NCBI RefSeq assembly: GCF_028769735.1
Contig: NC_088194.1
Location: 1,744,319 to 1,808,318, forward strand
Direction: 5' to 3'
Source: Zonotrichia leucophrys gambelii
Taxonomy: Eukaryota; Chordata; Aves; Passeriformes; Passerellidae
Length of the DNA stretch: 64,000 bases
Shown: piece after piece, positions 9,255 through 33,130 of the stretch
Numbering within the stretch: position 1 is the first letter of the stretch
How the letters are laid out: the number at the start of each line of letters is the position of its first letter
The notes under the pieces: model-generated
The model's database searches: none
What the model was told of the DNA's origin: nothing
What the model saw: the letters and a program-made list of their open reading frames with translations, nothing else
Translations under genes and position numbers: made by a program

Positions 9255-10790
9255 GGTTCCCTCCTCCTTCATGCTTCAAACATGAAGCCTTTTAGAATGG
9301 CCTGGGAGGAGTGTTTGGCTTTTGGCTGTGGTTGCCAGACAAGAGGGAAAAGTGTGGAAATATGGAGCTGTGGCTCTGGCTGCAGCTGTGGTGGGGTTGT
9401 GGTGATTGATCCTGTGTGGATTCGGGGTTTCCCCAAAGCTGCTCAATCCCTGCCCTCCTCACCTTAGTGAAAGGTTTAGGGATTGCAGGAATTGTGGTGT
9501 AAAGCCACCTGTTGCTGCTGTGGACCCAAGATGAGCCTGAGAGCAGGCGCTGCTTCCTTCCATTCAGGATCATGGAGAGTGGTCGCAGGTGTTGTGCAGG
9601 GTGTGTGCCTGGCCCCGGGACACTGCTAAGCTGCCAGTGGGCACTGGGATCCAACCCCCTGCCTTGGTGGCTTCTGCCCGCTGCTGGTGGTGGTGCCGGG
9701 ACCAATTGGTGCCCGTGAGTTTGCAAAAGGAGCGATTTCCCCTCCTGCCTCCCATCCGAAGCTGCCATGGCCCCTGAGGGGATGGAGCTGGACCGGGGTG
9801 CCCCCTGCTGGCCCGTGAGGGTTCCCTGCAGCGCCCCCTGCTGGCCCCGGTTACAACTGCCACAAAAACCAACAGCGCTGAGCGGGACAGAAAGTTCTGG
9901 GTTTGTGTTTCTGGTTCTGTTGTGGTTTATAAATTTCCCAGTAAAAAGCTGTTATTCATTCTCCAACACTTTGGCCTGGTATCCCCATAATCTTGGAAAT
10001 TAAAAGAAGTTTAGAGATGGGTCTTCTTTCCATTCCTGGAACATTCTCACTTTCCTTGGCAGATATTCCTCATTTAAATGAGTTGCCACCTCCTGTGTTC
10101 CAGCGTGGATGTTACAGACACCCCAAGAGAAGAGAGATTTAGAGACTTGGCCATCTCATGCTCTTTCTTTTAAACCAATTGGGCCATCCAGGGCCCTCTC
10201 CCCAGGTGGGGAGACTGGTGGGGACTTCTGGTCACCTGGTCACTCAGGACCTGGCAGAGCGTCACACTGTCCCCAGTGTGCCATGGCTGACAGACTGATG
10301 GACATTTGGGGCCCTGTCTCAGCAAAAGCAAGGCCTCACCCACCCTTGCAGCACAGCTGTTCCAAAATGTCTCCAGACATCAAACATTTCCTGTCTCTGA
10401 CACCCCACCCTGTGCCATGCCCTAATCCTGACTGCCTTGGTAAAGAGGGAGGCTCTGGAACCCTCACAGGGCCTTTGTGAGATCATCGTCTTGGGTACAG
10501 GGCAGAGGAGGGGTTTGGAACAGGGGACGAGAGAGTCCAGAGCCTCCTGAAGGCTGCTGTGGCCATCAGAGCAAGGAAGATCCAGGGCCCTGCCAGGTTC
10601 CTCTGGTGGAGGAAACGTGCTGGGGGAAATATCTGGGGTTTGTTCCTTATTGGTGGCTTTCTCTGGAAACCATTCCTTGTCTGACAATTTGGATTCTGAA
10701 CCTCGTTGCTGTCGCTGTTTGTTTTAATATCTCTAGCTGCTGTTTCAGGAAATTGTTATTCTCTCAGCCCTTTTGGATTTTTGTGTCTCC
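9255..10790 (+). repeat. Spacer-beta copy with paired CTCF-like motifs
   Basis: Matches 23,255-24,727 (continuing at 25,344 beyond an LTR) and 31,600-33,130. Each copy lies 3' of the last exon of a minus-strand FCRL unit (units 3, 5 and 6). No open frame is preserved across the three copies. Confidence 0.65.
9798..9844 (-). promoter_or_regulatory. Tandem CTCF-like motif pair, copy 1
   Basis: Two motifs, GTGCCCCCTGCTGG at 9798-9811 and GCGCCCCCTGCTGG at 9831-9844. On the minus strand the second reads CCAGCAGGGGGCGC, a close match to the known CTCF core. The first copy has one changed base (GT for GC). Spacing start to start is 33 bp. Binding is inferred. Confidence 0.55.
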
Positions 10791-10884
10791 ATGGGGAGGG
10801 AGAGGGGCAGTTTTTAGTGGCAGCACACACACGAGTGGGTGCCCATGGGTGGGGACCCCCAGTGCCCCCCAGTTCCCCCCAGTG

Positions 10885-13800
10885 TCACAGCACATTCCCG
10901 TAGATGTCACCGGGTTCCTGTGGTCGCCCCTGGGGTCCCCGCAGCTCCGCGTAGGTCACCTGGGGATCCTGGAGGGTGGTGGCACGGGGGGACACTGCGA
11001 GAGACACGGGCTGTGGGATCTGGGTGGGGTAAAACTCATGGGTGACGTGTCCCTCTGCGTGTGTCCTTCCCGTACTCACCCCCTGCCCTCTTGGTGACCA
11101 CGACATGGGTGTACAGCACCTCCCCCTCCTCTGGGGGGGCCCTGAGGGAATAAAGGGGATGTGTGGAAGGGGATCGGAGGTCTTGGAGGTTGGGGTAAAA
11201 GGGGAGAGTATGGTTTGATCCCCCCACTCACCTTTCCTGGTTCTTCCTGGTGGCTGCAGAGGAAAGAGGGGAGGGGTGACTCTGGGGTCGCATGGCCCTG
11301 AACCCTCTCAGGGTTCCTGAACTCCCTCGGGACTCCAAAGCATCCCTGAAGCCCTCCATAAGTCATGAACCTCTTTAGTGCCCCCGCCAAAATCAGCCTC
11401 AAAAACCCAAAGCCTACCAAGGATAATGACCCCCAAACACCCCCAGGGTCCCTGAAAGAACCCCCAGAATCCCTGCAGGACCCTCCTGCACCTCACCAAA
11501 CCCTACAGGATCCACAGACAAGGTCACAGTTCTGGAGCTGTGGATGTTATCCTATCTCTCCCAAAATCTGGGGCCTCTACAGCTCCCTGTGACCCCCGTC
11601 CCCCCAATGCCACCCACCCACGGTGCCACCAGTGCCAAGCCACAATGACACCCATGAGCAGGAGCAGGAAGAAAAGGGCCCCACCGACCCCTGCAGCCAC
11701 TGCAAGAAACAGAGGGGGACACATCCGGGTCACCCATCACCCCAGGAGGTCCTGCACTCCCTGGTGACCCTGAGTGACCCCACCTGAGTCCCTCTGTGTC
11801 CCTTTGTTCTATAGAGTCACCTCCAGGGACAGCTCTGGGCTGGGTGCCCGGAACACGCGGTGCCCGTCCTGTCCCTGCTGGTTGGTGGCCACGCACTTGT
11901 AGGGGCCCAAATGTTCCACATTGATGTCCCTGAGCTCCAGGAGAGGACCCTGGGCCACCTCCTGCCCATTGTGCAGCCAGGTGAAGGTGACAGGGGCTGA
12001 GCCCACCTGCACTGAGCAGCGCAAGTCACATTGTCACCTGCACCCACCTGATGTGACAGGGGACTGGGGATGATGGTGGCATTGGCCACAGGTACTGCAG
12101 GGCACAGATGGGGCTGAGGACACAGTGCAGGACTGGCAGCTGGTGTGGGGAGATAGGGACAGGGGGATTGTTGTGATTGGGGATGTTGGGGATGCAGTCA
12201 CACCATGGAGGTGTGAGGGGACAAGGGGTGTGATGGAAGGGCATCAGACAGTTGTCTGGGGGACATGGAGGTGCCGAACCAGGGGACCCGAGAGGGCCGT
12301 GGGATCTCCCCATGCCCATCACCGCACTCACTGCGCACTGTGACACAAAGCTGGGTGCTGCTCTTCCGCACGGATCCCCCCCCCCCCGCCCCCCGCCCCT
12401 CCCACTCCGGAATGCATCTCAAAGCCATATTGCCCAAATGGGAGACCCCCATGATGGTCAACAGCAGCTGCAGGACCCCTGCGCACCCCCCCTCCCCCAC
12501 CACCTGCCTGTCACAGTAGAACACGTGCAGGAGAGGGGCTCAGGGTCGCAGGGGGCTGGGGGTGCTGAGACCGCTGAGAGTCAGGGGGGACCCATTGGTG
12601 AGCTCGGGGGGACCCTCCAGCACTGGCACCGAGAAGAGCTCAGGGCAGGAGAGGGGAGGTGAGGACTGTGACTCTGAGTCTGCTGGGAAGGGGTTTTGGG
12701 GGTGTCAGGAGATTGGAGTTCCAGCCGTGGGGGTGCTCACCAGGCACTGTCACTGTCACTTCTGATGACTGTGACTTAAAGGACCTCACCAATCCCCCGC
12801 AGCTGTATCTGCTGCTGTGGCAGGTTCAGCTGCAGGAGCAACAGGAACAGCTCAGTCCCATTGAGGGGCCCCCTCAGATCCTTGTTGTTCAGGTAAAATC
12901 ACACCCTGGTGTCTGTGTTGTTCTACCAGCCCCAGCAGCACAGTGTCACCTTGTCCTCCTCCACCAGCACCCATGTTGGCACCTGTACAACCAGATGATC
13001 TGTGGGACAGGAGGGTCACATCTCACTGAGGGGTTGAGACAGGTCCAAGGTGGGTGTCCATGGCACCAGGGACGTCTGGGTGCCCTGGGATGCACAAAGG
13101 TATCCAGGTGTCCTGGGGACAGGCTCTCGTCCTGAGAGCCAGAGGGTGTAATGTCACCACGGAGTGGAGCCCACCCAGACCTGAAAGTGGCCACCCTGAT
13201 CATAAAAGATCCCCCCTCACCATCTGAGACTGTCACGGGGGGGCTGAGCCCTGCGCTGGCTCTGTCCCACTCGTGAGTGCCACTCTCGGTGACAGTGAAG
13301 TGGTCTCGTCCCTCCTGCCACCAGCGTTGCCCGTTCCTGTACCAGGTGGTGGCACCGGCACTCTCCAAGCCCTGGCAGGTCAGTGTCACCCAGTCCCACA
13401 GCACCGCCAGCCTCCAGGGGGGCTCCACCAGGAGCTGGGTGGTCTGGGCACCTGTAGGTGACAGGGGACACCAGCCTGCCAGGGCCAGTGTGGGGCTGGG
13501 GACAGCAGGGTGGGGCCATGGCATCCCCTGAGGACTCACCAGCGAGGCCGAGGGTCTGGGCTGGAAGGGAGAAGGGACAGGGCTCAGTGGGGGTGTCACC
13601 ATGGGAACAGCACTTCTTATTAGAAAATGTGTCTGAGTGGCCCCAAAAGATTTGTCGTGGCAGGGGGACATGTGTGTGTCACAGCCACTGGTGCACAACA
13701 TCCCTGTGGCACGGACACCTTGGGAACAGGACCTTGTCCCCTTCGGTCTCTGCATCCCAGTTCTCTTGTCCCTATCCCCAGAGTTACCTGAGCCCAAAGG

Positions 13801-14553
13801 TGCCAGTCCCCACATTCCTGTCCCAACATCCCCATCTCCAAATATCTGCCCCCTGTTCCTGTCCCCAAAGCCACCCTACATCCTCAGTCCCACCAAAGTC
13901 CACTATGGGTAACAGGGACAGGTTCTTCTGGCATTGGGGACCTCAGGGGACCCCACAGCCCCCCTGTGCCCCCTTCCCTCCCCATCCCCAGGTATTGGAA
14001 TATGTATCCCAATATAACCAGTTAGATGGTGCCTAGGCCAGTTCTGACCTTCGCTGCTGGGCCAACGGCAGCACTGCGGTGTTTTACCCCAGCGATACCT
14101 TGGCTGGCGGCAGAGTGCAGCGGGGCACAAGACAGGACTCCGTTCTCCTCAGGAGAGAGAGCTTCTGGCGATAGTGGAGATAAGGAAGGAATGGATTCTG
14201 CTAGAAGGTTGCCAGATGTTTATTCCATGAGTACAGAGATGTCTGCACTGGGCCACTGCTGCTAACAGAATGGAGGCCACATGGTCTCATTAACATTTTA
14301 AGCTCAGGACAGGGGAAGGGGAGGGGACAGGTGAGTCACCAACCAGGTGAAGGGGCAGGGTCTCAAGGGACTAGGGACACCTATCACAGGACGCCTTGCT
14401 GGTATGTTAGCCTGATTGACAGGGCACACTCAGCGAGGGGCGAGGGGGAAGGGAGAAGGTAAAACAGGATATTGCAACACACCACAACACCCAGGGTGTC
14501 AGGCCTGTGCCTGGGCACTCACCCCAAAGGAGCAGCGCCACCTTCCCGGCCAT
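10885..14553 (-). pseudogene. FCRL-like unit 3 (four-Ig type with two ITIM exons), disrupted
   Basis: Exons in transcript order: signal 1 at 14553-14523 (MAGKVALLLW, intact), mini-exon 13560-13540 (21 bp), D1 13451-13221, D2 12999-12741, D3 about 12640-12332, D5 12094-11784, transmembrane 11699-11622, 22-bp exon 11253-11232, tail 11141-11080 with the ITIM EVLYTHV, last exon 10994-10885 with the ITIM VTYAEL and then DIYGNVL. Lesions: the D1 F-strand Cys is Trp (THEWD for TYTCD), D2 has TAG at 12923-12925, the D3 acceptor AG is TG (12642) and D3 has TGA at 12540-12542, D5 has a 1-bp deletion near 12,026 and an in-frame TAG near its end. The tail exons are the best-preserved ITIM exons in the window. 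A solo LTR lies in intron 1. Family is firm; the pseudogene call is strong for the ectodomain. Confidence 0.85.
13987..14496 (-). mobile_element. Solo LTR in intron 1 of unit 3, with 6-bp target duplication
   Basis: A 498-bp insertion at 13993-14490 is flanked by CCCAGG on both sides (13987-13992 and 14491-14496). Removing it restores the sequence seen at the same place in unit 2. On the minus strand it begins TGTTGTGGTG, ends CAATA, and carries an AATAAA signal in GGAATAAACATCTGG. This is the layout of a solo retroviral LTR. The 3' terminal CA has changed to TA. No coding part of a virus is present. Confidence 0.7.
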
Positions 14554-14630
14554 CCCGGTGTCCCCAGCCATGTGCACTGGCTGTCACTCACTGCTGTGGC
14601 CACCGCTCTCCTGGCTGGTGGCTCTTCAGA

Positions 14631-14652: not shown

Positions 14653-16050
14653 ACATCTGTCCCCACATTTAAGAGGCCCTTAGTAAGGGCATGGTGGCCA
14701 CAAGCTGGGCACAGGGTGGGGACATGATGGGATGGTCTGTGGACATGGTGAGGGATGCTGTTGCCACGAGTGGGGGTCTCAGGGGATGTGGGGAACCAAG
14801 GATGGGTTTCCAGGAGAATGGGTGTCCAGGGGAATTGGGATCTCCAAGCCTGGGAGGATTCAGGATGGGGTTGCTGTGGGAACAGGGTCCCCAGGTATTT
14901 GGAGTCATGGCATGTTGGTGTCAGGGTTCGAGGTGCAGGGGGAAAAAAGGGGACCCTTGGGAATAGGGGTTCTGGGGGAAGAATCAGCCCATGGGATGGG
15001 TCAAGGCAATGGTCGTGCTGGCCATGGTGGTCCTGGGATGTGGGTCCCCAGGGAGGAGGGACCAAGGCAATGGGGGTCCCATGGTTGGGTTGCCAGGGGA
15101 ATGGGGGTGCCAGGGGTGGGAAGTGGCTGGGCGGGCACAGAAGTCACAGCTCATGCATGGGATGCCACAGATTTTGGGGTTAATCAGACCCCAGCAAAGC
15201 CCTATCCCTGGGGCACCCCAGGGCTGTCCTGGGAGTTTCTGTGTCCCTGCTCCACACACCCCTGGGTCAGGTCCCCCCATTTGCTCTTCCATCCCAGGCA
15301 ACACTTGATTACCAATTCGTTCAGACCAAAGCCATAGAATAAAAGAAATAATCTTTCCAACACCTTTATTTTCCCAAGAAAGAACAAACTCATTAAAAAT
15401 CAATCTGACAAGTTATATAATGGTCTGGTTTATAGAATCCATTGCTTTCCCAACAAATCCCTCACAATAAAAACACAAACAAATCACAATGAAATGAGAA
15501 GTTTTGGTTCTCTTTAGGAGCCCCTTGCTGCATCCCACAGCAGCTTTATCTCCCTGAGTGTCCAACAGCTCCATGGGATTATTCCCTGCCTGCTGGGCAG
15601 CAACCCAGCCCATAAGGAAACCTTTTCTTGACCCATATTTAGGAACTCTCCCTGTGTTTCTCATTTCCACCCTGAAACCTTATTGACTTCCCATTGAAGA
15701 AGGGGAGAAGCTCTGTCTATCCTTGGGACAGTGCACAGGAATCTGTGGAAATGCCTATGTGTGCCTCAGGGTCTGATTCCCTGGTAAATCCACTCCAGCC
15801 TGCCCTGAATTCCCCTGCCTGGGCACTCCCTGCTCCTGCTGTGACACTCCTGTTCCCCAGCCCCTCGTGTGCAGCCCCTGCTCAATATTTTCACACTTTC
15901 CCCTCTCTTCTGGTGTACACATCCAGAACATACACATTCTTTCCATGAGGTTCCAAAGGGCTTCAGGTTTTGTTCAAGAAGGAGGGTCCAGGTCAGGTTG
16001 TTGAGCAGATTGTGTTCATCTTTGCAGTAGTTCTGGGGCTCTCTCAGTCC
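14653..16050. other. Head-to-head intergenic region between units 3 and 4
   Basis: Upstream DNA of unit 3, resembling the upstream DNA of units 2, 4 and 5 (purine-biased runs such as GGGGAATGGGGGTGCCAGGG), then AT-richer DNA at 15,290-15,700. No exon structure is recognised. Confidence 0.5.
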
Positions 16051-16059
16051 CTTACTGAG

Positions 16060-16920
16060 AGGGACAAAACGATCGATTGCTGCCTTTCTGGATTGGTTCC
16101 CTCACAGTCACCCCTGCCAGGGCGGGTTTCCCACCAGCCCTGCTCTGAAAACCATCAGAGGCCCTCGCAGAGCCACTGCTTGGGCTCCCTTTGGATTTTT
16201 TGTTTCTTGCAGGGTTGAACAAACCACAGACAGGCCTTTTTCCCCCACAGAATTCTCACCTCTGCAGCAGCTCTAAAGCTGCCAGAATCAAAGCCAAGGG
16301 GGCAGGGGGGACCCTCAGGTGCTGGCTGCCACCTGGGGCTGGCCAGAGCAGGGCTGGGCAATGGCCATCCCTGTGCAGTGGGGCTGGGCCATGGCTGGGC
16401 CCCACCCTTGGATGGCCACTGGCTTCAAGGAGCAGGAGTTTGGGAGCTCCTTCCTGCCCGGGGCTCCATTCCCCAGCTGCTCTTGCTGGCTCAGATCCTG
16501 CAGGGGATGAGCAAGAATGGAGAAGTCTGGACCCCTCTGGAGCTGCCATCCCCCAGGACAGAACCTCCTTGTCCAGCATGTGTCCCCCCTGGGACAGGAT
16601 TCCCCCAGAGCAGGAGACCCCTGGATTTGCCCCCCATGTGGGAAATGGGTCAAACGGCCACTTCCTTCTGCTGCAGGAGAGAGAAAGTGAAATTGTTGGG
16701 AGGGGAAGTGGGACACCCCCATCCCCCACAGCCTCCCCAGCCCTCTCTGCAGACCCCTCACCCCTGCTTCCCCCACCATGGGCTTCCCCCAGTTTGTTCC
16801 CTGCTCAGGGCCTCCCCTGGTTCATCAAGGCACAAAATTGAGGGTTGTGAAATTGAGGGGTAAAATGATGGAAATGGAAATAAAGAGGGGAAAAGCCCCT
16901 GGGGTCTATGGGGACACAGA
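16060..16920 (-). repeat. Spacer-alpha long copy, inverted
   Basis: Reverse complement of 30,650-31,530 over most of its length, including the stretch around GCTCTTGCTGGCTCAGATCC (16,480). Its 216- and 161-codon open frames arise from the repeat and have no domain or splice context. Confidence 0.65.
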
Positions 16921-17647
16921 CCTAGACCTTTTTGGAACCTACCTGGGGTGACGCTCCCAAACCACAAGCACCCTGAGAGGACTTTGCTGAACCCTGGGTC
17001 ACCCCAAAATCTGAGCCACCCAGGTACGGAGCTTTGACCAATGGGCTCACCAAGCCACTGCCCATCCCTGGCACTCCCATTGCCCTGGAAATCAAATCAT
17101 GGGATCACCATTCCTGATCTTGCCTGGGACCCCCATCCCAGTACTGACATTCCCCAGGACCTCCATAGCCCAGGACCTCCTATTCCCAAGGAACCCTCTC
17201 CCGTTCATTCCATCTCCTGAAATCTCCCTTCCCCCAGGACCTTGATTCTCCCAGGACCCCCATTCCCACAGGAACTCCCCATTCCCCCAGCATCCCCATC
17301 CCATGACCCCAAATCCCTGGAGCCCACGTTCCCCTGGGACTCCCATCCCTGAGTCCTCCCAGTCCTGGGCACCCCCATTCCCATAGACGCCATCCCTGGT
17401 GACTCCCCCTGCTCAGGACTCCCACTTCCAGGGACCCCATTCCTGGGACCCCCATTCCCCTGGACACCCATCCCTGGGTCCCCCGACCCACCAAGTCCCC
17501 CACTCGTGAAAACCCCATGTCCTGCCGTGTCCCATCCTGCCTGGCCCCATCCTGCCCTCAGCCTGTCCCTATGGCCACATCCCCGTGACCCTGTGCTTGT
17601 GGCCACCCTGCCCCCTCTAAGGGCCACCAACGCATGAGGACAAGACC

Positions 17648-17672
17648 TGACCTCGCTTCCTTCCCCTTTATC
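17648..17672 (-). promoter_or_regulatory. Candidate ETS/PU.1 element upstream of unit 4
   Basis: The minus strand reads ATAAAGGGGAAGGAAGCGAG about 80 bp before the ATG at 17748, the same position as in units 2, 3 and 5. The GGAA cores are visible; activity is inferred. Confidence 0.35.
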
Positions 17673-17747
17673 CAAAAAGCCACCAGTGAGGGGTCAGCCA
17701 CCCCCGGCAGTGAGTGACAGCCAGTGCACATGGCTGGGGACACTGGG

Positions 17748-20683
17748 ATGGCTGGGAAGGTGGTGCTGCTCCTGTGGGGTGTGTGCCCTGGGCATGGGCC
17801 TGACATCCCAGGGATGGGGAGGGAAGGGGGCACAGGGGGGCTGTGGGGTCCATTGAGGTCCCCATTGCCAGCAGTGCCAGTCCATGTTACACACAGTGGA
17901 CCTGAGTGGGAACAGGGATGGAGGGTGGCTTTGGAGACAGGAACAGGGAGGCAGGAATTTGGGGATGGGGATGTGGGGACAGGAATGTGGGCCTGGCATT
18001 TCGGCTGAGGTATCTCTGTGGATACTGAGAAGTAAACGGGAATGCAGGGACTGGAGGGGACAAGAACAGTGATGATGTGGCCATGGGGATGGGATCATGA
18101 GCTGGTGGGGGGAACCTGGGCCAGCATGGGCTGTGTCCGTGGTGTCCTCGTGCCCAGGGTGTTCACAGTGACCCCATGTTCTGCCTCAGCCCAGAGTGGC
18201 CTCGGTATCCCTGTTCCCAAGGTGTCTGTACCTCATGGATGTGGTGCACGGGTGCCTGTGACACAGACATGTCCCCCTGCCTCTCAAAATCTTTTGGGGA
18301 GCACTCCCATGCACTTTCTCAAAAGAACTGCTGTCCCCATGGGGACTGTCCTCACACCCTGTACCCCTATGCTGCTGTCTCCCTGGTTCCACCCTCACCC
18401 AGCCCTGTCCCTTCTCCCTTGCAGCCCAGACCCTTGGCGAAGGTGAGTACTGGGGGATGCCATGTACCCACCCTGCTGTCCCCAGCCCCACTCTGGCCCT
18501 GGCAGGCTGGTGTCCCCTGTCACCCACAGGTGCCCAGACCACCCAGCTCCTGGTGGAGCCCCCCTGGAGGCCGGCAGTGCTGTGGGACCAGGTGACACTG
18601 ACCTGCCAGGGCTCGGGGATTGGCAGTGCCACCACCTGGTACAAGGACGGGCAGCGCCGATGGCAGGGACAGAAAACCGTCCGTGTCACCGAGAGTGTCA
18701 ACTACACGTGTGACATACCCAGCAGTGGGCTCAGCCCACCCGTGACTGTCTCAGACAGAGAGGGGGTTTGGGTGTCCCCAGGCTGGCACCCAGAGGACCC
18801 CGAGGGCGCTGGGTGGGCTCTGCTCTATGGGTCACCCCCTGTGTGATCAGATCCCATCCCCTGCTCTGGGGACATCCCAGAGCATCCCAGTGTGGGTGGA
18901 ACTCGTTTTGGAATCGGGGAGCCCTGTGCATAGGGTGTGACCAAATGGGGGTGTTCCAGTGCTCTCCCCCAGACTGGCTGGTGCTGCAGAGGCTGGTACA
19001 GGCACTGCTGGAGGGGGACACAGTGACACTGTGCTGCCGGGGCTGGCGGAACAGCACGTTTACCTCAGCATTCTTCTACCGAGAGGAGATGGAACTGGGG
19101 GTGCTCCGCGGTGGGACCGAGCTGTCCCTGTCCTGTCTGCAGCTGCACCACAGTGGCCACTAAAGGCACAGGGGCTGGGTGGGATCCTGGGGGTGACAGG
19201 AGTCAGAGCCAGTGCCAGTGCCAGTGCCAGTGCAGGGTGAGCACCATACAGCCACCACCCTGACACCCACACAGCCCTTCCCCAGAGACTCGGATTCTGA
19301 AATTCGCCTCTTCTCCCCTTCACAGAGCTCTTCTCGGTGCCGGTGCTGGAGGGTCTCCCTGATCCCACCGTCGGGTCCCCCCTGACTCTCAGCTGCCTCA
19401 GCAGCCCCGGCCCCCTGTGGCCCTGAGCCCCCCTCCTGCACGTGTTCTACCGGGACGGGCAGGAGGTGGGGGGCCCGCAGGTGTCCCTGCAGCTGCTGGT
19501 GCCCGCTATGGGGGCCTTCTCCTCGAAGAATTCCATTTCCGAGGGCGGGGCCATGCCGAAGAGCAGCGCCCAGCTTTGCATCACAGTGCGCAGTGAGTGT
19601 GGTGATGGGCACGGGGAGTCCCCAGAGACCCCCCAGGTCCCCTTCCTGGGTACCTCCATGTCCCCATGAAATATTTCTTTTGTCCCCCCACCTCTGCCCT
19701 GGGTCCCCTCACTCCTCCGTGATGTGACCCCGTCTCCAACATCCGCCACCACACCCATCCTTCCGTCCCTATCCCCCCACATAAGCTGCCAGCCCCTCCC
19801 TGTGGTCTCAGCCATGGCTGTGTCCCTGCAGTGTGCATGGCCAATGCCACCATCACACCCGGTGTCCTGGAGCTGACACCACAGGACACAGGGACACACA
19901 GCGACACAGGTGGGGTCACACAAGGTTCACCAGGGAGTGCAGGACCCCTGGGGTGATGGGTGACCCTGATGTGTCCCCCTCTGTTTCTTGCAGTGGCCGC
20001 AGGGGTCAGTGGGGCCCTTTTGTTCCTGCTCCTGCTCGTGGGTGTCATTGTGGCCTGGCACCGGTGGCACCGTGTGGGTGGGTGACAATGGGGGCACAGG
20101 GGTCATGGAGAGAGGTGGGAAGGCCCCCAGAGAAGGGGGGCCCTAGGGCAGCACCCACAGCCCCTGGCTTGGGAGGGGCTGAGCCCCCAGTGACCATGGC
20201 TCAGAGCCCTGGGGAGCTGTTGGAGGGTCCTGCAGGGATGTTGGGGGTTCTATCAGGGGTCCCCCTCCCTGCCGGGCTCGGGGCTCTGGGGGCTCAGGGT
20301 GTTGGTGCAAGTGGGGTGGGTCAGGGATACTGGGGGGGCATCAGGGATACTGGGGGGCCCTGGGAGGAATTGTGTGTCTGGTTGGTGGTTCAGCATTTCC
20401 AAGGGTGGATGGGGCCCCTGGGTCTCCAAAGTCACCCCTCCAGTTTTCCTTTGCAGATGCCAGGAAGCACCAGGAAAGGTGAGTGCAGCCTCCAGCCATG
20501 ATACACCTTTTACCCAAACCCCCAGCACCTCCCATCCCCTTCCACACACCCCCTTATTCCCACAGGGCCCCCCCAGACCCCCTGGCACCCCCGGTGGAGG
20601 ATCCTCAGGCGACGTACATGGAGCTGCAAAGGCAACCGTGGGAACCCAGTGACATCTATGACAATCTACACCAAAAGTTGTGA
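17748..20683 (+). pseudogene. FCRL-like unit 4, duplicate of unit 2, disrupted
   Basis: Exons: signal 1 at 17748-17778 (MAGKVVLLLW intact; the donor is GTGTGT instead of GTGAGT), mini-exon 18425-18442 (18 bp instead of 21, phase kept), D1 18530 to about 18756, D2 18973-19236, D3 19326-19592, D5 19832-19909, transmembrane 19994-20077, 22-bp exon 20457-20478, last exon 20566-20683 (TYMELQ and DIYDNL). It shares with unit 2 the D2 TAA (19161-19163), the D3 TGA (19424-19426), the D3 loss of the F-strand YxC residues and the D5 collapse to 78 bp. Its own lesion is at the D1 donor: ACGGTGAGG has become ACAGAGAGG, so no GT is left. The signal exon, by contrast, lacks unit 2's stop. The duplication therefore came after most of the damage. 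Confidence 0.85.
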
Positions 20684-21025: not shown

Positions 21026-21765
21026 AAGGTTTCTAAGGTGAAAATGAAGCACAAACATGGCAATATTATATCAGAGAACTGTTTATTGATAAAGGAGGGT
21101 AAGTGTTCTTACTGAATGTGGAGAGAAGGGACTAGAAAGGGACAAGGATAGAGGGAGAAAGAGAAGACAGGGACAGCGTTACCATCACAAGCCCGGGTGC
21201 TCTGTGGGCATCAGCTGGGCAGATGGAGTGTGTGTGCTGCAAGCCAGGGCGAGCCCACATGGCTTTTGTGAGTGGCTGGGCGTGATTTCCAAGGACGGCA
21301 CCTGCGTGTCTCTGGCATGGGCGAGCGATGGCTGCAGGCTGGCTGCTGCGGGCTGGCTGCGGGCTGGTGCTGCGGCACTGGTGGCTCTGGGCTGGCTGCT
21401 GCGGGCTGGGGCTGCGGTGGGCAGGTGCAGCAGGCTCGGTGCTGTGGGCAGCACGGGAAACGCGGCAGAGGCAGCGGGTGGGTGCAGGCAGCATCTGCTC
21501 CATCGGGGAGGCAATGAAGGAACGTCCAGGACGAGCAGGAATGAGCTGCCTCAGGGAAGCAGCACAGCAGGGAAGAACAGGCACAGACAGGGAAGGAGGA
21601 CCACCAGGAGGAAAAGGCAGTGTGGGGGGAGTATCAGTGGCATTTTTCCCCAACGACCGGGAGGAATGATGCATCTGACTCCATCTTTTCAGAAGGCTAA
21701 TCAATTACTTTTTTATACTATATTATTGTATATTATATTACATTACATCTAAACTGAATCTGCCA
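21026..21765. repeat. Downstream block of unit 4 with GC-rich core
   Basis: Second copy of 7,021-7,760 with the same CTGCGGGCTGG-rich core (about 21,323-21,455). It is part of the roughly 14-kb-spaced block duplication. No gene is supported. Confidence 0.5.
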
Positions 21766-22739: not shown

Positions 22740-23254
22740 TTTTTACATTATTGATTATACTGTTGAATAAATATTGCGATGTTGTTCAGATAGTGAAAAG
22801 TATTGTGGAGTGGCTGATGTTGTTGTGGTGGCCATCCAAGGGTGGGGCCCAGCCATGGCCCAGCCCCACTGCACAGGGATGGCCATTGCCCAGCCCTGCT
22901 CTGCCCAGGCCCAGGTGGCAGCCAGCAACTGAGGGTCCCTCCCTGCCCCCTTGGCTTTGATTCTGGCAGCTTTAGAGCTGCTGCAGAGGTGAGAATTCTG
23001 TGGGTGGAAAAAGGCCTGCCTGTGGTTTGCTCAGCCCTGCAAGAAGCACAAAACCCAAAGGGAGCCCAAGCCCATGCCCAAATCTCTGTGAGGGCCTTTG
23101 ATGGTTTTCAGAGCAGGGCTGGCTGGAAATCGCCACCTGCAGGGGCAGCTGTGTGAGAACCAGTCCAGAAATGCAGCAATTGATCCTTTTATCCCTTGCA
23201 GCAAGGGTCTGAGATAGCCCCAAAAACCTTGCATATCCCGCAACATTCTGCTCA
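22740..23254 (+). repeat. Spacer-alpha copy, direct
   Basis: Matches 8,740-9,254 in order and orientation, with small indels (for example GGGTCCCTCCCTGC for GGGTCCCCCCTGC near 22,933). Confidence 0.65.
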
Positions 23255-24727
23255 ACAACCTGACCAGTTCCCTCCTCCTTCCTGCCTCAAACCTGCAGCC
23301 CTTTAGAATGTCCTGGGAAGAGTGTTTGGCTTTTGGCCGTGGCTGCCAGAAAAGAGGGAAAGGTGTGGAAATATGGAGCTGTGGCTCTGGCTGCAGCTGT
23401 GGTGGGGCTGTGGGGAGTGATCCTTTGTGGATTCCAGGCTTCCCCAAAGCTGCTCAATCCCTGCCCTCCTTACCTTAGTGAAAGGCTGAGGGATTGCAGG
23501 AATTGTGGTATAAAACCACCTGTTGCTGCTGTGGAACCAAGATGAGCCTGAGAGCAGGTGCTGCCTTCCTTCCATTCAGGATCATGGAGAGCGCTCATGG
23601 GTGTTGGGCAGGGTGTGTGCCTGGTCCTGGGACACTGCTACGCTGCCAGTGGGCACTGGGATCCAACCTGTTGCCTTGGCGGCTTCTGCCAGCTGCCGGT
23701 GGCGGTGCCGGGACTGATTGGTACCTGTGAGTTTGCAAAAGGAGCGATTTCACCTTCTCCCTCCCATCCGAGGCCGCCATGGCCCGTTAGGGGAAGGAGC
23801 TGGACCGGGGCGCCCCCTGCTGGCCGGCAGTGCTCCCTGCAGCGCCCCCTGCTGGCCACAGTTTTAACTGCCACAAAAACCAATAGTGCTGAGCGGGAGG
23901 GAAAGTTCTGGGTTTGCGTTGTTTGTTCTATTCTGGTTTATCAATTTCCCAGGAAAGAGCTGTTAATCCTTTTCCTACACCTTGGCCTGGAAGCCAGATC
24001 ATCTTTGAAATGAAAAAAAGGTTCTGAGATGGGTTTCTTTCCATTCCAGTTTTTATTTCCCAGTTTCCTTGGAAGATATTTCTCATTTAAATGAGTTACC
24101 AGCTTCTGGGTTCCAGCATGGATGCAACAGACACGCCATGAGCAGATAGGGTCAGCGATTTGGCCACCTCATGGTCTGCCTTTTAAGCCAGTTGGGTCAC
24201 CAAGGCTCCTCTCCCCAGCTGGCACTTCTGGTCACCTGGCTACTCAGGAGCTGGCTTTGTCAAAGTGTCACGCTGTCCCATGACTTGCAGATGATGGACA
24301 GACGGGGCCCTGTCTCACCAAAGGCAAAGCCTGACCAACCCCTGCCACACACAGCTGTTCCAAAATGTGTCCAGACTTCATATTCTTCCTGTCTCTGACA
24401 CCCCACCCTGTGCCATGGCCTGATTCCAACTGCCCTGGGAAAGGGGGAGGCTCAGAAAACTCCTCAGGGCCTTTGTGACATCCTGGTGTAGGGAACATGG
24501 CAGAGGAGGGGTTTGGGACAGGGGACAAGGGAATCCAGAGCCTCCTGAAGGCCACTTTGGCCATCAGAGCAAGGAAGCTCCAGGGCTCTGCCAAATTTCT
24601 CTGGTGGAGGAAACGTGATGGGGGGTGAAGTGTTTGGGGATTGTTCTTTGTTGGTGGCTTTCCCTGGAAATCATTCCTTGTGTGACCATTTGGACTCTGA
24701 ACCTTGTTGCTGTTGCTGTTGGTTTTG
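23255..24727 (+). repeat. Spacer-beta copy, interrupted by an LTR
   Basis: Matches 9,255-10,720 and 31,600-33,050. It stops at the solo LTR at 24,728 and resumes at 25,344, so the LTR landed in an existing spacer. Confidence 0.65.
23810..23855 (-). promoter_or_regulatory. Tandem CTCF-like motif pair, copy 2
   Basis: GCGCCCCCTGCTGG occurs at 23810-23823 and again at 23842-23855. Both are full matches to the 14-bp CTCF core on the minus strand, 32 bp apart, in the same orientation as the pairs near 9.8 and 32.1 kb. Confidence 0.6.
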
Positions 24728-25349
24728 TGTCCGGTTTTCGGCTGTTTGAAGGGCCTGGAAAGGCCCGGAGTGGCCTTGGGGCAGCCCGCGTATCGAAGGA
24801 CGAGAAGAGGCTTCAGTTCTTCTTTCTGTTTTTATGTTTATTAATTGTTTATCTAAAAGATTTTCTTTCAGCCCGACAGAGCTCTGCTCAGCAGTCAGCC
24901 ATGAGCACACTGTCCTGTCCTCCGGACAGCCACCTATCTTTGTACCCATTGTTACGTGTACAATATTTATCATTTTTCCCCAATACCATTTATTCTTATT
25001 GTCTGGTGCACTTTCAGTAATGACCAATCCAAAAGTGCCACCATCACCAAAGAAGATGGAGAAGAAGAAGAAGAAGGAGGACAGGACACGCCCCAATTCC
25101 TCCATCTTACTTCTCTAAACCTCCCTGTACATAAATCCTAAACCCTGTGTCTCACTCTCTAATTAACTAATCCCTTCACCATTCACCCCGGTGAAGTCCT
25201 CCTATCCTCATACAGGTGTCGTCTCCTGTGTAGGGTCAAAGTCCAGCCACCAGACACTTCTGGCAACATTCCAGGACTCCCGAGCCCCCCAAGGGTGGTC
25301 TCGGTGGCTCGGCACCTCAGGACTGAGATGCTGAGATCCCACAGTTTTG
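24722..25349 (-). mobile_element. Solo LTR A with perfect 6-bp target duplication
   Basis: The LTR spans 24728-25343 (616 bp). GTTTTG flanks it at 24722-24727 and 25344-25349. The plus strand reads TGTCCGG to CCCACA; on the minus strand AATAAACAT gives a polyadenylation signal, so the element points left. A close relative lies at 44,943-45,549. Six-base target duplications fit class II (ERVK-like) elements. No internal viral genes are present. Confidence 0.85.
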
Positions 25350-25737: not shown

Positions 25738-28700
25738 TCACAGCACCTTCCAATGGATGTCACTGGTGTCCTGCAGTCGCCCATGTGGTCCTGGCAGCTC
25801 TGTGTGGGTCACCTGGGGGTCCTTGGGGGGAACAGTAAGAGACACCTGGCTTGGGGTGACACCCATGGGTGACATGTCCATGTCCCCACCCATCCCCCAT
25901 ACTCACCCCCTGACCCCTCATGTCCAGCCCCTCCCCCACCTGCAGGGGATAGGGGGTTCTGGGGGGCCCTGTGGGGATAAGGGGGGGTCTGAGGGGTATC
26001 TGGGGAGGGGGTCAGGCAGAGTCATGGCTGGAGCTCCTCACTCACCTGTCCTGGGATTTCCTGAGAGCTGCAAGAAAAAGAGGATGGGGTGATCGTGGGA
26101 TCTCCTGGGCCCGAACCCCATCTGGGAACTTTAAATGCCCACTGGACCCCTGAGTCCCCAACAGACACTGATTTCTACTGGACTCCTAGGCCCCTGCACC
26201 CCAAAGCACCCCTGAGGAGCCCCAGAACACCTGAGCCACCCAGGTACTCCAACCCCCTCCCCAGGAATCCCGAACCCCTGAGCACCCCTCAAGCCTCAAG
26301 GAACCCCAAGAATAGAATGCAGGGAAGCCCCAAACTGCTCCAGGATCGCTGAAGAGCTCTCAACATCCCTGCACAACTCTCCAAAACCTCCCAAAAAGCC
26401 CCCCAAAAATCCCAGTGTCACCCAAATATTCCTCAAGGCCCTTCCTGGGACAGCCCAGGACCCTCCAAAAGGCCCCCAAACCTGTGAGCACCCCAAGCAA
26501 AGGTCACTGGGGGCTCAGCTTCCTCCAGCTCAGGGAGTTGGGTGATGCCCCAACAGCCCCCCAAATGTGTGGGGCTTCCCCCCGATTCCTGTAGGACCTT
26601 GTCCCCGCCCCGCCCCATTGTCACCCACCCCAGCGGTGCCACCAGTGACAGTCCCCGATGACAGCAAGGAGCAGGAGCAGGAACAGGAGGGTCCTGCCGA
26701 CATTCACAGCCACTGCTGGGAGTAGAGGGGGACACACTGATGTGACCCTGAACCCTGGGGGTCCTGAACACCCTGGTGACTCTGTGTGATCCCACCTGTG
26801 ACCCAGGGTGAGCCAGGTGTCACCTCCAGGGCCAGCTCAGGGCTCAGTGCCCGGATCACGTGGTGCCCGTCCTGTCCCCGCTGGTTGGTGGCCATGCACT
26901 GGTAGGTGCCCGAATGTCCCACATCGATGTCCCTGAGCTCCAAGAGGGGACCCCGTGCCACCTCCTGCCCATTGTACAGCCAGGTGAAGGTGACAGGGGC
27001 TGAGCCCACCTGCACTGAGCAGTGCAGGGTCACGTTGTCACCTGCACGCACCTGATGTGACAGGGGACCAGAGGTGATGGTGGCATTGGCCACGGGCACT
27101 GGTGGGGACAGAGACAGGGCTGGCACCTGGCGAGGTGGAATGTGGTTGCTGTGGGTGGGGTCATTCCCAGCCCAAGGGTCCCACTCACCCAGGACGGTGA
27201 CATTCAGGGGGTCACTCTCGGCCACACTGTCCCCGTCACTGACCCGGCACTGGTACTGGCCGCTGTCATTGTCCCCAACGTGGCACAGCTCCAGGTGCTG
27301 GCCGGTTCTTGGCAGTGCCCCTGAGCCCTCCCGGTGCCAGGAGAAGGACAGGGGACCTGTCCCTGTGGCCACCGCACAGCTCAGCACCAGGTGGTCTCCA
27401 AATACAACCTGTCCCCCAGGGGTCTGCACTGACAGGGACACCCCCGAGGGTGGGACCCCTGCGGGAGAGTGGGACACCAGGGGAAAGTGAGGGACCCGGG
27501 GGGGTGTCAAGGAGGGGCAGGGGAATTCCAGTGAGGGAGAGGGGGTGCAGAGATTGGAGGAGGGGGGCTTCAAAAGGAACCCCGAGAGATGGTAAGGGGG
27601 TTAGGGAGGGAACACCTCGAGAGGGAGGTGGGCAACACCAGGAAGGGTATGGGGACCATGGGAGGGGATGGTGAGACTTGGGCAATGTGCAGAGACATCA
27701 GAGAGGGGTGGAGGGACCTAGGGATGGGGGAGGGGACCCAACGAAGGATGGAGGGAAACATGAGCCAGGAATGGGGGGACCATAGGAGCGACCTGGGGCA
27801 GCGATGGCAGGACACAGAAAATGCACCAGGGAAGGATGAGGGTACCCATGTAGGGGCTGGGGGTCCCGGGGAGAGACCCGAGAAAGGATGGGGGGGGGCG
27901 GGCAGGGAGGGATCTGGAAAAGGTTGGGTGCCCCAGAGCAGGTGTCAGGGAGGGCTGGGGGATGCCAGGCAGTGTGGGGGACCTGAGGCATCTGTGTAGG
28001 CTCCCCGTGCCCATCCCCACACACTGCACACTGTGAGGAGGAGCCGGGCGCTGCTCTTCTGCATGGACCTCCACTGGGAGTGCACATCACAGCCATAATT
28101 CCCCGAGTGGGAGACCCTCACAGCGGGCACCAGCAGCTGCGGGCCCCCCACCACCTGCCCGTCCCTGTAGAACACATGCGGGGGGGGGCTTGGGGCCGCA
28201 GGGGTCTTGGGGCCGCAGGGGGCTGGGGCTGAGGCAACTGAGATTCAGGGGGGACCCCTCAGTGAGCTCCTGGGCACCCTCCACCACCGGCACCGAGAAG
28301 AGCTCTGGGAAGGAGAGGAGAGGTGAGGACTGTGAATCTGAGTGCACTGGGAAGTGGCTTTGGGGTTGTCAAGATATTGGAGTTCCAGCCGTGTGGGTGC
28401 TCACCATGCACTGTCACTGTCACTGGTGCTGACCATGACTGCCAGGACCCCACCAAGCCCTCACATCTGTAGTGGCCGCTGTGGTGCAGCTGCAGAGGTG
28501 AAAGGGACAGCTCAGTCCCCTTGAGGGACCCCCTGAGAGCCTTCTCCTCCCGGTATTTGCACCCTGGTGAGATGGTTGTCCTGCTGGCTCCGGCAGCGCA
28601 GTGTCAAGGTGTCCCCCTCCAGCAGTGGCCGCGCTGGCACCTGCAGCACCAGTGGGTCTGTGGGACAGGAAGGTCACATCTCACTGATGACACTGGTCTG

Positions 28701-29919
28701 GGGTGGGTGCCCATAGCACCAGGGACATGTGGGTGCTCTGGGGTGCTCTGGGGTGCTCTGGGATGCACTGGGATGTCCCCAGAGCAGGGCAAAGGCTCTT
28801 GTCACAAGAGGGGTGTGAGCCCATCTACGGAGTGGAGCCCACCCTGAGCTCTTGGGCCCCCATTATAATTAAAGGTCTCCCCTCACCATCTGAGACTTTC
28901 AAGGGGGCGCTGCGCCCAGTGCCGGGTTTGTCACATGTATAGGTGCCACTCTCAGTGACACTGAGGCGGTCCTGTCCCTCCTGCCACCAACGCTGCCTGT
29001 CCTTGTACCAGATGGTGGCACTGGCAGTCCCCGAGCCCTGGCAGGTCAGTGTCACCTGGTCCCACAGCGCCGCCGGCCTCCAGGAGGGCTCCACTAGGAG
29101 CTGGCTGGTCTGGGCGCCTGCGGGTGACAGGGGACACCAGCCTGCCAGGGCCAGTGTGGGGCTGGGCACAGCGGGGTGGGGCCATGGCATCCCCCAAGGA
29201 CTCACCAGTGAGGCCGAGGGTCTGGGCTGGAAGGGAGAAGGGACAGGGCTCAGTGGGGATGTCACCATGGGGACAGAGGCACATGGGGTACAGGGTGTGG
29301 TGGCTGTCCCCGAACTGTCCCTGTGGGGACAGATGCTTTTGTGGGAAAGTGTGTGGGTGGTCCCCAAAAGTCTGGACAGGCTGAGGGACATGTCTGTGTC
29401 ACAGCCACCCCTGTACCACATCCCTGTGGCACAGACACCTTGGGAACAGGGACGTGGAGGCCACCCCGGGCTGAGGCAGAACATGGGGACACTGAGAACA
29501 CCCCGGGCACAAGGACACCATGGTCACAGCCCATGCTGGCCCACGTCACCCCCCACCAGCTCATGATCCCATCCCCGTGATCGCATCCCCATGGCTGCAT
29601 CCTCACGGTTATTGTCCCTGCATCCCGGTTCCCTTGTCCCTATCCCAGGAGCTGCCTGAGCCCAAAGGTGCCAGTCCTCACATTCCTGTCCCCACATCCA
29701 CATCTCCAAATTCCTGCCCCCTCTTCCTGTCCCCAAAGCCACCCTACATCCCCATTCACACCCAGGTCCACTGTGGGTAACATGGACTGGCACTGCTGGC
29801 ACTGGGGACCTCAGGGTACCCCACAGTCCCTCTGTGCCCCCTTCCCTCCCCATCTCTGGGGTGTCATGCCTGTGCCTGGGGCACTCACCCCAAAGGAGCA
29901 GCGCCACCTTCCCGGCCAT
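25738..29919 (-). pseudogene. FCRL-like unit 5 (five-Ig type), disrupted, tyrosine motifs lost
   Basis: Exons in transcript order: signal 1 at 29919-29889 (intact), mini-exon 29226-29206, D1 29117-28887 (open, both Cys), D2 28657-28405, D3 28304-28025, D4 27458-27189 (GVSLSVQ, LSCAV, QYQCRV), D5 27098-26796, transmembrane 26712-26629, 22-bp exon 26067-26046, tail 25968-25917, last exon to 25738. D4 and D5 are fully open and connected. Lesions: about 2 bp missing in D2 near the VQIP/VRFY position, a 16-bp partial tandem duplication in D3 that shifts the frame, and a lost acceptor for the last exon. Both tail tyrosines are His (VTHTEL, DIHWKV), and the middle tail exon has no ITIM. It is either a pseudogene or, with D2 and D3 skipped, a tail without tyrosine signalling. 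The first is more likely. Confidence 0.8.
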
Positions 29920-29989
29920 CCCGGTGTCCCCAGCCACGTGCACTGGCTGTCACTCACTGCTGTGGCCACCGCTCCCCTGGCTGGTGGCT

Positions 29990-30016
29990 CTTCGGATGAA
30001 GGGGAAGGAAGGGAGG
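29990..30016 (+). promoter_or_regulatory. Candidate ETS element upstream of unit 5
   Basis: GGGGAAGGAAGGGAGGTCAG lies about 80 bp upstream of the unit 5 ATG (29919, minus strand), the same block and distance as in units 2-4. Its activity is inferred. Confidence 0.3.
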
Positions 30017-30649: not shown

Positions 30650-31530
30650 TTTTTCCCTCTCTTTATTCCATTTCCATCATTTTACCCCTCAATTTCACAA
30701 GCCCCCAGTTTGTGCCTTGATGGTCCTTGGGGGCACCTGGAGCAGGGAACAGCTTGGGGGAAGCCCAGGGTGCGGGAAGCCCAGGATGGGGGAAGCAGGG
30801 GTGAGGGGTCTGCAGGGAGGGCTGGGGAGGCTGTGGGGGATGGGAGAGTGCAGTTTTAACCCCCAACACTTTCACTTTCTGTCTCCCCCAGAAGAAGGAA
30901 AAGGCCATTTGACACCTTTCCCACATGGGGGGGGGAAGGGTTCTGTCTTTAGGGGGCACATCCAGGGGGCTCCTGTCCTGGGGGAATCCTGCCCCAGGGG
31001 GGACACATGCTGGGGAAGAGGGTCCAGTCCTGCAGCTTGGCACCTTCGGAGGGGTCCAGAGTTCTCCATTCTTGCTCATCCCCTGCAGGATCTGAGCCAG
31101 CAAGAGCAGCTGGGGAATGGAGCCCCGGGCAGGAAGGAGCTCCCAAACTCCTGCTCCTTGAAGCCAGTGGCCATCCAAGGGTGGGGCCCAGCCATGGCCC
31201 AGCCCCACTGCACAGGGATGGCCATTGCCCAGCTCTGCTCTGGCTAGCCCCAGGTGGCAGCCAGGACCTGAGGGTCCCCATTGCCCCCTTGGCTTTGATT
31301 CTGGCAGCTTTAGAGCCCTTGCAGAGGTGAGAATTCTGTGTGGGCGGAAAAGGACTGCCTGTGGTTTGCTCAGCCATGCAAGAAGCACAAAACCCAAAGA
31401 GAGCTAAAGCAGTGGCTCTGTGAGGGCCTTTGATGGTTTTCAGAGCTGGGCTGGCTGGAAAACCCCCCGGCAGGGGCAGGTGTGTGGGAACCAGCCTGGA
31501 AATGCAGCAATTGATCATTTGTTCCTCTTT
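30650..31530 (+). repeat. Spacer-alpha long copy, direct
   Basis: Inverted relative to 16,060-16,920 and direct relative to 8,740-9,254. The 244-codon minus-strand frame at 30,663-31,397 lies wholly in this spacer and is not conserved. Confidence 0.65.
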
Positions 31531-31599
31531 GTAAGGGACAGAGAGAACCAGAAAACTACTTCAAATCGCAGAACAATATGCCAACAATCTTCCTGGGCA

Positions 31600-33130
31600 C
31601 CTTCTTGAACAAAATCTGCAGCCATGAGGAACATCATGGAAAGAATGCTTGGATTCCAAATTTGTCCACAAAAATAGAGAGAAAAGTGTTGAAGTATTGG
31701 TCAGTGGCTCTGCCTGTGGCCATGGTGGGGCTGTGGGGAGTGACCCTGTGTGGATTCCAGGTGTCCCCAAAGCTGCTCCATCCCTGCCCTCCTCACCTGA
31801 GTGAAAGCCTGAGGCTTTGCAGGAATTGTGGTGTAAAGCCACCAGAGGTGCTACTGTGCACTCAAAACCTGCCTGGGGTCAGGCCCTGCCTTCCTTCCAT
31901 TCGGGATCATGGAGAGCGGTCGTGGGTGTTGTGCAGGGTGTGTGCCTGGCCCTGGGACACTGCTATGCTGTCAGTGGGCACTGGGATCCAACCTGCTGCC
32001 TTGGTGGCTTCTGCCCGCTGGCGGTGGTGGTGCTGGGACCGATTGGTGCCCGTGAGTTTGCAAAAGGAGTGATTTCCCCTCCTCCCTCCCGTCCGAGGCC
32101 GCCATGGCCCCTGAGGGGATGGAGCTGGACCGGGGCGCCCCCTGCTGGCCGGGAATGCTCCCTGCAGCGCCCCCTGCTGGCCGGGGTTATAACTGCCACA
32201 AAAACCAACAGCGCTGAGCGGGAGGGAAAGTTTTTGGTTTGAGTTTTTTGTTCTCTTCTGGTTTATAAATTTCCCTGTAAAGAGCTGATATTCCTTTTCC
32301 TACGCTGTTGCCTGGTATCCCCATAATCTTTGAAATTTGAAAAGAGTTTTAGGGATGGGTCTTATTCCAGCTAGGTTCCTACTTTCCTTGGCAGATATTT
32401 CTCATTTAAATGAGTTGCCACCTCCTGGGTTTCAGCATGGATGGGACAGACACCCTAAGAGGAGACACAGTCAGGCACTTGCCCACCTCATGCTCTGCCT
32501 TTTAAGCCAATTGGGTCAACAAGGGCCCTCTCCCCAGGTGGCACTTCTGGTCACCCGGCCACTCAGGAGCTGGCTTTGGCAGAGTGTCACACTGTCCTCA
32601 GTGTGCCACGGCTGAGAGACTGATGGAGAGATGGAGCCCTATCTCACCAAAAGCAAGCCTGACCCATCCCTTACACACATAGGTGTTTGAAAATGCCTCC
32701 AGACATGAAGCTTTTCCTGTTTCTGACACCCCACCCTGTGCCATGGCCTGATCCTGACTGTCCTGGAAAATGGAGAGGCTCTCGGATCCCTACAGGGACT
32801 TTGTGTCATCCTGGTGCGGGGAACAGGGCAGGGGAGGGGTTTGGGACAGGGGAGAAGAGAATCCAGAGCCTTCTGAAGGCCACTTTGTCCCTCAGAGCAA
32901 GGAAGGTCCAGGGCCCTGCCAGGTTCCTCTGGTGGAGGAAACATGCTGAGACAATATCTGGGGTTTCTTCCTTTTTGGTGGCTTTCCCTGGAAACCATTC
33001 CTTGTGTTACAATTTGGACTCTGAACCTTGTTGCCGTTGCTATTGGTTTTATTCTCTCTGGTTACTGTATTAGGAAATTGTTCTTCTCTCAGCCCTTTGG
33101 GATCTTTGTCTCTCCACGGGGAGGGAGAGG
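31600..33130 (+). repeat. Spacer-beta copy, complete
   Basis: Uninterrupted copy of the beta spacer, ending just 3' of the last exon of unit 6, in the same geometry as 9,255-10,790 next to unit 3. Confidence 0.65.
32135..32180 (-). promoter_or_regulatory. Tandem CTCF-like motif pair, copy 3
   Basis: GCGCCCCCTGCTGG at 32135-32148 and at 32167-32180, 32 bp apart, both full matches and in the same orientation as the two other pairs. Confidence 0.6.

What the first reader, a model, noticed from the sequence alone, without database searches (positions are those of the whole stretch)
9798..32180. Three spacers each carry two same-orientation CTCF core motifs 32-33 bp apart
GCGCCCCCTGCTGG pairs at 23810/23842 and 32135/32167, and a pair with one variant member at 9798/9831, stay conserved while the nearby genes decay. 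Each pair lies 3' of a minus-strand unit (about 1.0 kb for units 3 and 6, about 1.3 kb for unit 5 after subtracting the LTR). Such arrays could act as repeated insulators or loop anchors spread by duplication across an immune-receptor cluster.
Basis: partly seen in the sequence, partly recalled or inferred. Interest (0 to 1): 0.75.

Follow-up and report, generated by a model that had tools for sequence, protein, structure and literature searches.

The report
Double CTCF sites between FCRL genes
Three copies of a duplicated spacer in a songbird immune-receptor gene cluster each carry two strong, same-facing binding sequences for the genome-folding protein CTCF; they are real and look mildly protected from mutation, but whether they are bound or do anything was not tested.

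Summary
Exact or one-mismatch GCGCCCCCTGCTGG pairs lie at 9798/9831, 23810/23842 and 32135/32167. They are the six best CTCF-matrix hits in the 64 kb (19.3-23.4 bits; next best 11.9), against about 0.07 such hits per window in Markov nulls. The genes are songbird-type Fc receptor-like (FCRL) units. The three pairs are one ancestral pair copied inside a homologous spacer (82-87% identical), not three independent gains. All six motifs face the same way, on the minus strand, and the window holds no strong opposite-facing partner, so convergent loops among them are not possible. 'Conserved while genes decay' is only partly right. Units carry stops and frame breaks, but in the U1/U3 duplication block the zone around the pair is among the more diverged parts (83%; most of the block is 87-97%). 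Within that zone motif positions are somewhat protected (P about 0.006-0.03 in neutral simulation; 2-8% of slid controls do as well). Most likely these are genuine double CTCF sites of the known 2xCTS type, spread by segmental duplication, perhaps one-way cohesin barriers. Occupancy and function are untested.

The parts
9796..9814 (-). CTCF core, S1 first (GGGCCAGCAGGGGGCACCC), 19.3 bits; one CpG changed to TpG/CpA
9829..9847 (-). CTCF core, S1 second, 20.6 bits
23808..23826 (-). CTCF core, S2 first, 21.4 bits
23840..23858 (-). CTCF core, S2 second, 23.4 bits (best hit of the window)
32133..32151 (-). CTCF core, S3 first, 21.4 bits
32165..32183 (-). CTCF core, S3 second, 22.5 bits
8823..10727 (.). 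spacer copy S1, between convergent units U1 and U2
22828..24727 (.). spacer copy S2, between convergent units U3 and U4; ends at an LTR-like repeat
31167..33052 (.). spacer copy S3, between tandem minus-strand units U4 and U5
11818..14629 (-). FCRL unit U2 (leader-like match 14509-14629, D1 13446 to D4 11818; last tail match ends 10888); two stops in D2, frame change in D4
26821..29992 (-). FCRL unit U4 (leader-like match 29909-29992, holding one stop; D1 29112 to D4 26821); frame change in D2
34168..36426 (-). FCRL unit U5 (no separate leader match; last tail match ends 33204); stop in D3
3670..6663 (+). FCRL unit U1 (leader-like match 3670-3753 to tail match 6663)
17675..20668 (+). FCRL unit U3 (leader-like match 17675-17758, holding two stops, to tail match 20668); stops in the D2 match
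2955..10725 (.). 7.8 kb block duplicated to 16935-24726 at 89%; carries U1 (U3) plus the S1 (S2) spacer

Best explanation
An ancestral intergenic spacer of a songbird FCRL array gained a tight double CTCF site: two cores 32-33 bp apart, head to tail. The site was then copied at least twice with the spacer during unit duplication (shown by the alignment). The cores are close enough to ideal that CTCF very probably binds them (inferred). With both motifs pointing left, bound CTCF would stall cohesin arriving from lower coordinates. Each pair would then act as a one-way barrier or right-hand loop anchor between neighbouring FCRL units, with its partner outside the window (inferred). Slow loss of core bases compared with their flanks suggests weak purifying selection (suggestive only).
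For: Six top CTCF hits in 64 kb; Markov null about 0.07 per window; spacer homology with the pair in register. Motif columns 35 of 38 identical against linker 9 of 14 (Fisher P 0.025). 18 of 18 high-information columns unchanged; neutral simulation mean-score P 0.006-0.007. CpG observed/expected in 500 bp around the pairs is 0.34, 0.43 and 0.45 against a mean of 0.20 for windows in 1-38 kb, although 11.7%, 2.7% and 2.1% of those windows reach the values of S1, S2 and S3. Genes are FCRL.
Against: No occupancy data. Sliding controls reach the same conservation at 2-8% of offsets, and the motif was chosen because it recurred exactly, so these P values flatter it. The pair is missing from the U0/U1 spacer, which keeps the flanking element. 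No convergent partner in the window. No convincing upstream ZF9-11 motif: best matches 6-7 of 10, null P 0.34 and 0.10.
Confidence: 0.6

Rival explanations
1. Passive hitch-hiker: a strong CTCF site that is present, perhaps bound, but without a role in the cluster. It is copied and not yet decayed because the spacer copies are young.
For: Spacers are still 83.5-87% identical. Sliding control 3.8% and 8.2%. Longer invariant runs exist elsewhere in the spacer (67 and 35 bases; another 24-base run ties with the one over the second core). The pair is absent from sister spacers. Several neighbouring units show lesions.
Against: Zero changes at 18 high-information columns where about 4.0-4.3 substitutions were expected over the three copies (P 0.011-0.016); the linker between the cores has changed.
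Confidence: 0.27
2. A 2xCTS-type regulatory element that works as a promoter or enhancer platform, possibly with CTCFL in the testis, rather than as an insulator.
For: Mammalian 2xCTSs favour active promoters and enhancers and can be co-bound by BORIS/CTCFL (PMC4562119, passages). CTCFL gene models are reported in several songbirds, although not found in chicken (PMC5871936, passages). The S3 pair lies about 2.1 kb upstream of the U4 leader-like match.
Against: At S1 and S2 no minus-strand unit was found directly to the left; the unit there (U1, U3) ends towards the pair. Two kilobases from a start is far for a promoter element. No expression data.
Confidence: 0.06
3. Tandem CTCF array of the protocadherin or Igh kind: the same-facing sites balance which FCRL unit contacts a distant enhancer.
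For: Repeated, same-oriented sites tied to paralogous units. Tandem arrays do this in Pcdh and Igh (PMC7087399, abstract).
Against: Only 3 pairs for 7 units seen, not next to a promoter at two of three; no opposite-facing anchor in the window.
Confidence: 0.05
4. Chance GC-rich similarity, not a CTCF site.
For: The 14-mer at up to 3 mismatches is not enriched (24 against 18.69).
Against: Matrix scores and Markov nulls.
Confidence: 0.02

Closest known systems
Clustered CTCF target sites (2xCTS), Pugacheva et al. 2015, PMC4562119 (passages seen)
   Same: Two strong cores close together in one orientation; the published heat-map set also has both motifs on one strand.
   Different: The published heat-map set has a 30-40 bp linker; here only 13-14 bp lie between the 19-bp cores (32-33 bp start to start). 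Occupancy not shown here; bird, not mammal.
Tandem CTCF arrays of the Pcdh and Igh clusters, Jia et al. 2020, PMC7087399 (abstract and outline seen)
   Same: Repeated same-facing sites in a paralogous gene cluster.
   Different: Here the sites lie in intergenic spacers about 1 kb 3' of minus-strand units; that Pcdh sites sit at promoters is recalled. No partner anchor seen; only three of the spacers have a pair.
Repeat-borne CTCF sites, Schmidt et al. 2012, PMC3368268 (passages seen)
   Same: CTCF sites multiplied by copying of DNA; that paper also reports that CTCF-divided tandem genes differ more in expression.
   Different: Copied here by segmental duplication of a spacer; no further copy of the pair in the window.
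Avian FCRL genes
   Same: Exons match passerine FCRL proteins, e.g. Haemorhous, Geothlypis and Passer at 63-66% identity.
   Different: Chicken is reported to have few FCRL genes (PMC4016189, passages); this is a multi-unit, partly broken array.

Membership tests
CTCF binding site | core motif matching the CTCF matrix at high score | tested here: met
   six sites of 19.3-23.4 bits out of 24.9 (matrix recalled from memory); also close to the core printed in PMC12885311, CCACCAG(G/A)GGGGGCC (compared by eye)
CTCF binding site | occupancy by CTCF in cells | not testable with these tools
   no avian ChIP data held
CTCF binding site | upstream ZF9-11 motif (13-15% of sites; typical of insulators per PMC12885311, passages) | tested here: not met
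   best 6-7 of 10 over two consensus forms and nine gaps; null P 0.34 for 6 and 0.10 for 7. An optional feature of CTCF sites.
2xCTS | two CTCF cores within one peak-sized region | tested here: met
   32-33 bp apart, three copies
2xCTS | room for two CTCF molecules at once (published heat-map set: 30-40 bp linker) | tested here: inconclusive
   13-14 bp between 19-bp cores; steric fit not testable
2xCTS | two footprints; CTCF/CTCFL co-binding | not testable with these tools
   needs DNase footprinting or ChIP
Pcdh/Igh-like tandem CTCF array | same-oriented sites repeated across paralogous units | tested here: met
   6 of 6 on the minus strand
Pcdh/Igh-like tandem CTCF array | one site per unit, tied to the promoter or RSS (feature recalled) | tested here: not met
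   3 pairs for 7 units; 3' of minus units; nearest leader-like match about 2.1 kb away, at S3 only
Pcdh/Igh-like tandem CTCF array | opposite-facing anchor at the enhancer (feature recalled) | tested here: inconclusive
   none in the 64 kb; may lie outside
FCRL gene cluster | Fc-receptor-type Ig exons in several units | tested here: met
   FCRL5 chain at 1.7e-21; 621 proteins at E up to 0.001, 120 listed, mostly named FCRL or Fc receptor of passerines

The most novel reading that the evidence does not exclude
Songbird FCRL clusters carry a same-facing array of double CTCF sites that works as in protocadherin or Igh loci: it meters cohesin traffic from a distant anchor and so sets which FCRL unit each lymphocyte expresses. 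The pairs are then kept by selection even while the units around them turn over.
Probability: 0.05. Interest if true: 0.75.

Novelty: new member of a known kind. Interest (0 to 1): 0.36.

Why it matters
If bound, these pairs would show that CTCF boundaries can be multiplied by ordinary segmental duplication inside a fast-turning immune-receptor array. The three natural copies, one of them weakened at a CpG, make a ready test of whether array architecture or only single units is under selection. If unbound or neutral, it is a caution against reading function into motif copies that ride along with duplicated spacers.

Tried and rejected
Three independent gains of the pair: rejected, because the spacers align through the pair in register. 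Transposable-element origin of the pair: no other copy in the window; at E below 1e-9 only a stretch of about 130 bases, beginning some 90 bases right of the pair, recurs inverted at 8536-8680 and 22542-22685, and further profile hits have E of 0.07 or more. Origin of the two cores by a recent tandem duplication: the flanks of the two cores match at about chance level (2-6 of 15 and 2-4 of 13). Upstream CTCF motif: not convincing. Weak mirror sites 3' of the plus-strand units at 7592 and 21598: 11.2 bits only, and those regions show no homology to the pair-bearing part of the spacer. Germ-line CpG retention: mild, and unremarkable for S1.

Full report
OBSERVATION. The 14-mer GCGCCCCCTGCTGG occurs exactly at 9831, 23810, 23842, 32135 and 32167, and with one mismatch at 9798; the other 18 of the 24 matches have two or three mismatches. 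At up to 3 mismatches the 14-mer is not enriched (24 found, 18.69 expected), so the strength lies in the near-perfect copies. A CTCF consensus (recalled) with no mismatch hits only these six places (6 of 35 rows). With the CTCF matrix MA0139.1, whose counts I recalled from memory, the six score 19.3-23.4 of 24.9 bits; the next of the 24 hits of 9 bits or more scores 11.9. In 400 simulated windows each at Markov order 1, 2 and 3, hits of 19.2 bits or more occur 0.065-0.073 times per window, and 6-7% of windows hold at least one. The same nulls give 1.3-1.7 hits of 15 bits or more, so the empty gap below the six is partly luck. All six motifs are on the minus strand.

WHAT SURROUNDS IT. An exon translation hits Fc receptor-like protein 5 in the PDB at 1.7e-21. 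In the large protein set, 621 proteins match at E up to 0.001; the 120 listed have 44-76% identity (the highest over part of the query only) and are mostly named FCRL or Fc receptor; the species named are passerines as far as I recall, which I did not look up. The organism is therefore probably a songbird (inference); the species was not identified. Seven units can be mapped: U0 (+, cut by the window's left end), U1 (+), U2 (-), U3 (+), U4 (-), U5 (-, no separate leader match) and U6 (+, cut by a 10-N gap at 38371-38380). Pair S1 lies between convergent U1 and U2, S2 between convergent U3 and U4, and S3 between tandem U4 and U5. The last coding match of U2 (10888) and U5 (33204) is about 1.0 kb from the pair. 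For U4 the 3' end near 25.73 kb, taken from DNA alignment since no coding match was found there, gives about 1.25 kb after the LTR-like repeat at 24728-25343 is subtracted. S3 is also about 2.1 kb upstream of the U4 leader-like match (29909-29992).

HOW THE COPIES AROSE. 8823-10727, 22828-24727 and 31167-33052 align end to end, with pairwise identity 0.873, 0.844 and 0.835 and 1454 identical of 1860 ungapped columns. S1 and S2 are parts of a 7.8 kb block, 2955-10725 and 16935-24726, 89% identical. The leftmost element of the spacer (8823-9375) also occurs inverted upstream of U3 (15873-16419) and of U1 (2656-3007), but there the homology stops before the pair. So the pair is one ancestral feature copied with the spacer; the U0/U1, U2/U3 and U5/U6 spacers have no such pair.

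IS IT CONSERVED BEYOND ITS FLANKS? For: 35 of 38 motif columns are identical in three copies against 9 of 14 linker columns (Fisher P 0.025), and none of the 18 high-information columns (0.9 bits or more, my threshold) has changed. In a neutral simulation with measured per-copy rates and a separate CpG rate, expected high-information changes are 4.0-4.3, P(0) 0.011-0.016, P(mean matrix score at least as high) 0.006-0.007, P(lowest score at least as high) 0.007-0.010, and P(4 or fewer substitutions in all) 0.018-0.031 (000 draws each for whole-spacer and local rates). The only substitution inside a core 14-mer is a CpG transition at a position where the recalled matrix accepts both bases. Against: sliding the same column pattern along the alignment gives an equal or better result at 72 of 1887 offsets for the 18 columns (22 of 901 locally) and at 155 of 1880 for all 38 (58 of 901 locally); offsets overlap, and conservation in the spacer is patchy. 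Windows of 19, 52 and 66 columns starting at the cores are matched by 24.5%, 27.8% and 37.6% (first core) and 12.1%, 17.8% and 13.6% (second core) of all windows. The longest invariant runs lie elsewhere (67 and 35 bases); the 24-base run 9823-9846 over the second core ties for third. The motif was noticed because it recurs exactly, so the P values are optimistic. In the U1/U3 block, the bins from 9755 onward, around and right of the pair, are 83-86% identical; the rest of the block is 87.5-97% except the first two bins (81%). 'Conserved while the genes decay' is thus not a fair contrast for S1 and S2. Lesions are seen: frame change in D4 of U0 and U2, stops in D2 of U2 and in the D2 match of U3, frame change in D2 of U4, stop in D3 of U5. 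Assembly error cannot be excluded as their cause.

MECHANISM. Shown: motif strength, orientation, homology. Inferred: CTCF binding (I give about 0.75), one-way cohesin stalling with loops running left (about 0.4), selection (about 0.35). [quoted passage not shown] By the convergent rule (recalled), these sites would stop cohesin coming from lower coordinates. The strongest plus-strand hit left of S1 is 11.3 bits and in the whole window 11.6 bits, so no convergent partner is visible. With 13-14 bp between 19-bp cores, two molecules would sit tightly, and the published upstream motif is not convincingly present (best 6-7 of 10).

WHAT IS KNOWN. Mammalian clustered CTCF sites (2xCTS) are described in PMC4562119 (passages): two cores, a heat-map set with a 30-40 bp linker, association with active promoters and enhancers, and co-binding by BORIS/CTCFL. 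CTCFL is reported missing from chicken but present as gene models in several songbirds (PMC5871936, passages); PMC7471279 (passages) also states the chicken loss and cites bird orthologues. Tandem arrays balance promoter choice in Pcdh and Igh (PMC7087399, abstract and outline). Orientation classes of CTCF clusters are treated in PMC7422557 (abstract and outline). A search for FCRL, CTCF and insulator together returned 7 papers (listing only); by title and abstract start none concerns CTCF sites in an FCRL cluster. The listings on CTCF with segmental duplication and immune receptors (15 of 56 listed), passerine Fc receptor-like expansion (9 of 10 listed) and songbird CTCF and Hi-C (8 of 1,643 listed) showed none by title either. 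I make no wider claim of absence.

VERDICT. A true and well-described observation; an ordinary mechanism (segmental duplication) for its repetition; a plausible but untested role. New member of a known kind, moderate interest.

Noticed in passing
8823-8889, 22828-22894, 31167-31233: 67 bases identical in all three spacers, the longest invariant run, in an element that also lies upstream of U1 and U3 in inverted form (2656-3007, 15873-16419): possibly a unit promoter or upstream element.
   Followed up: partly
36426-36729: U5 and U6 are head to head, D1 exon to D1 exon about 300 bases apart, with no separate leader match; homology to other units breaks near 36677, as in a fold-back inverted duplication or an assembly fold.
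   Followed up: no
38371-38380: Ten Ns, a scaffold gap that cuts U6; sequence to the right may not be truly adjacent.
   Followed up: no
24728-25343 and 44943-45549: An LTR-like repeat, 88.7% identical, lying between pair S2 and unit U4.
   Followed up: no
54584-63900: Long minisatellite-like arrays with spacings of 31, 54, 21 and 23 bases among others.
   Followed up: no
1501-2500: GC drops to 34-41% in the U0/U1 spacer, where the pair-bearing part would be expected; perhaps a replacement by other DNA.
   Followed up: partly
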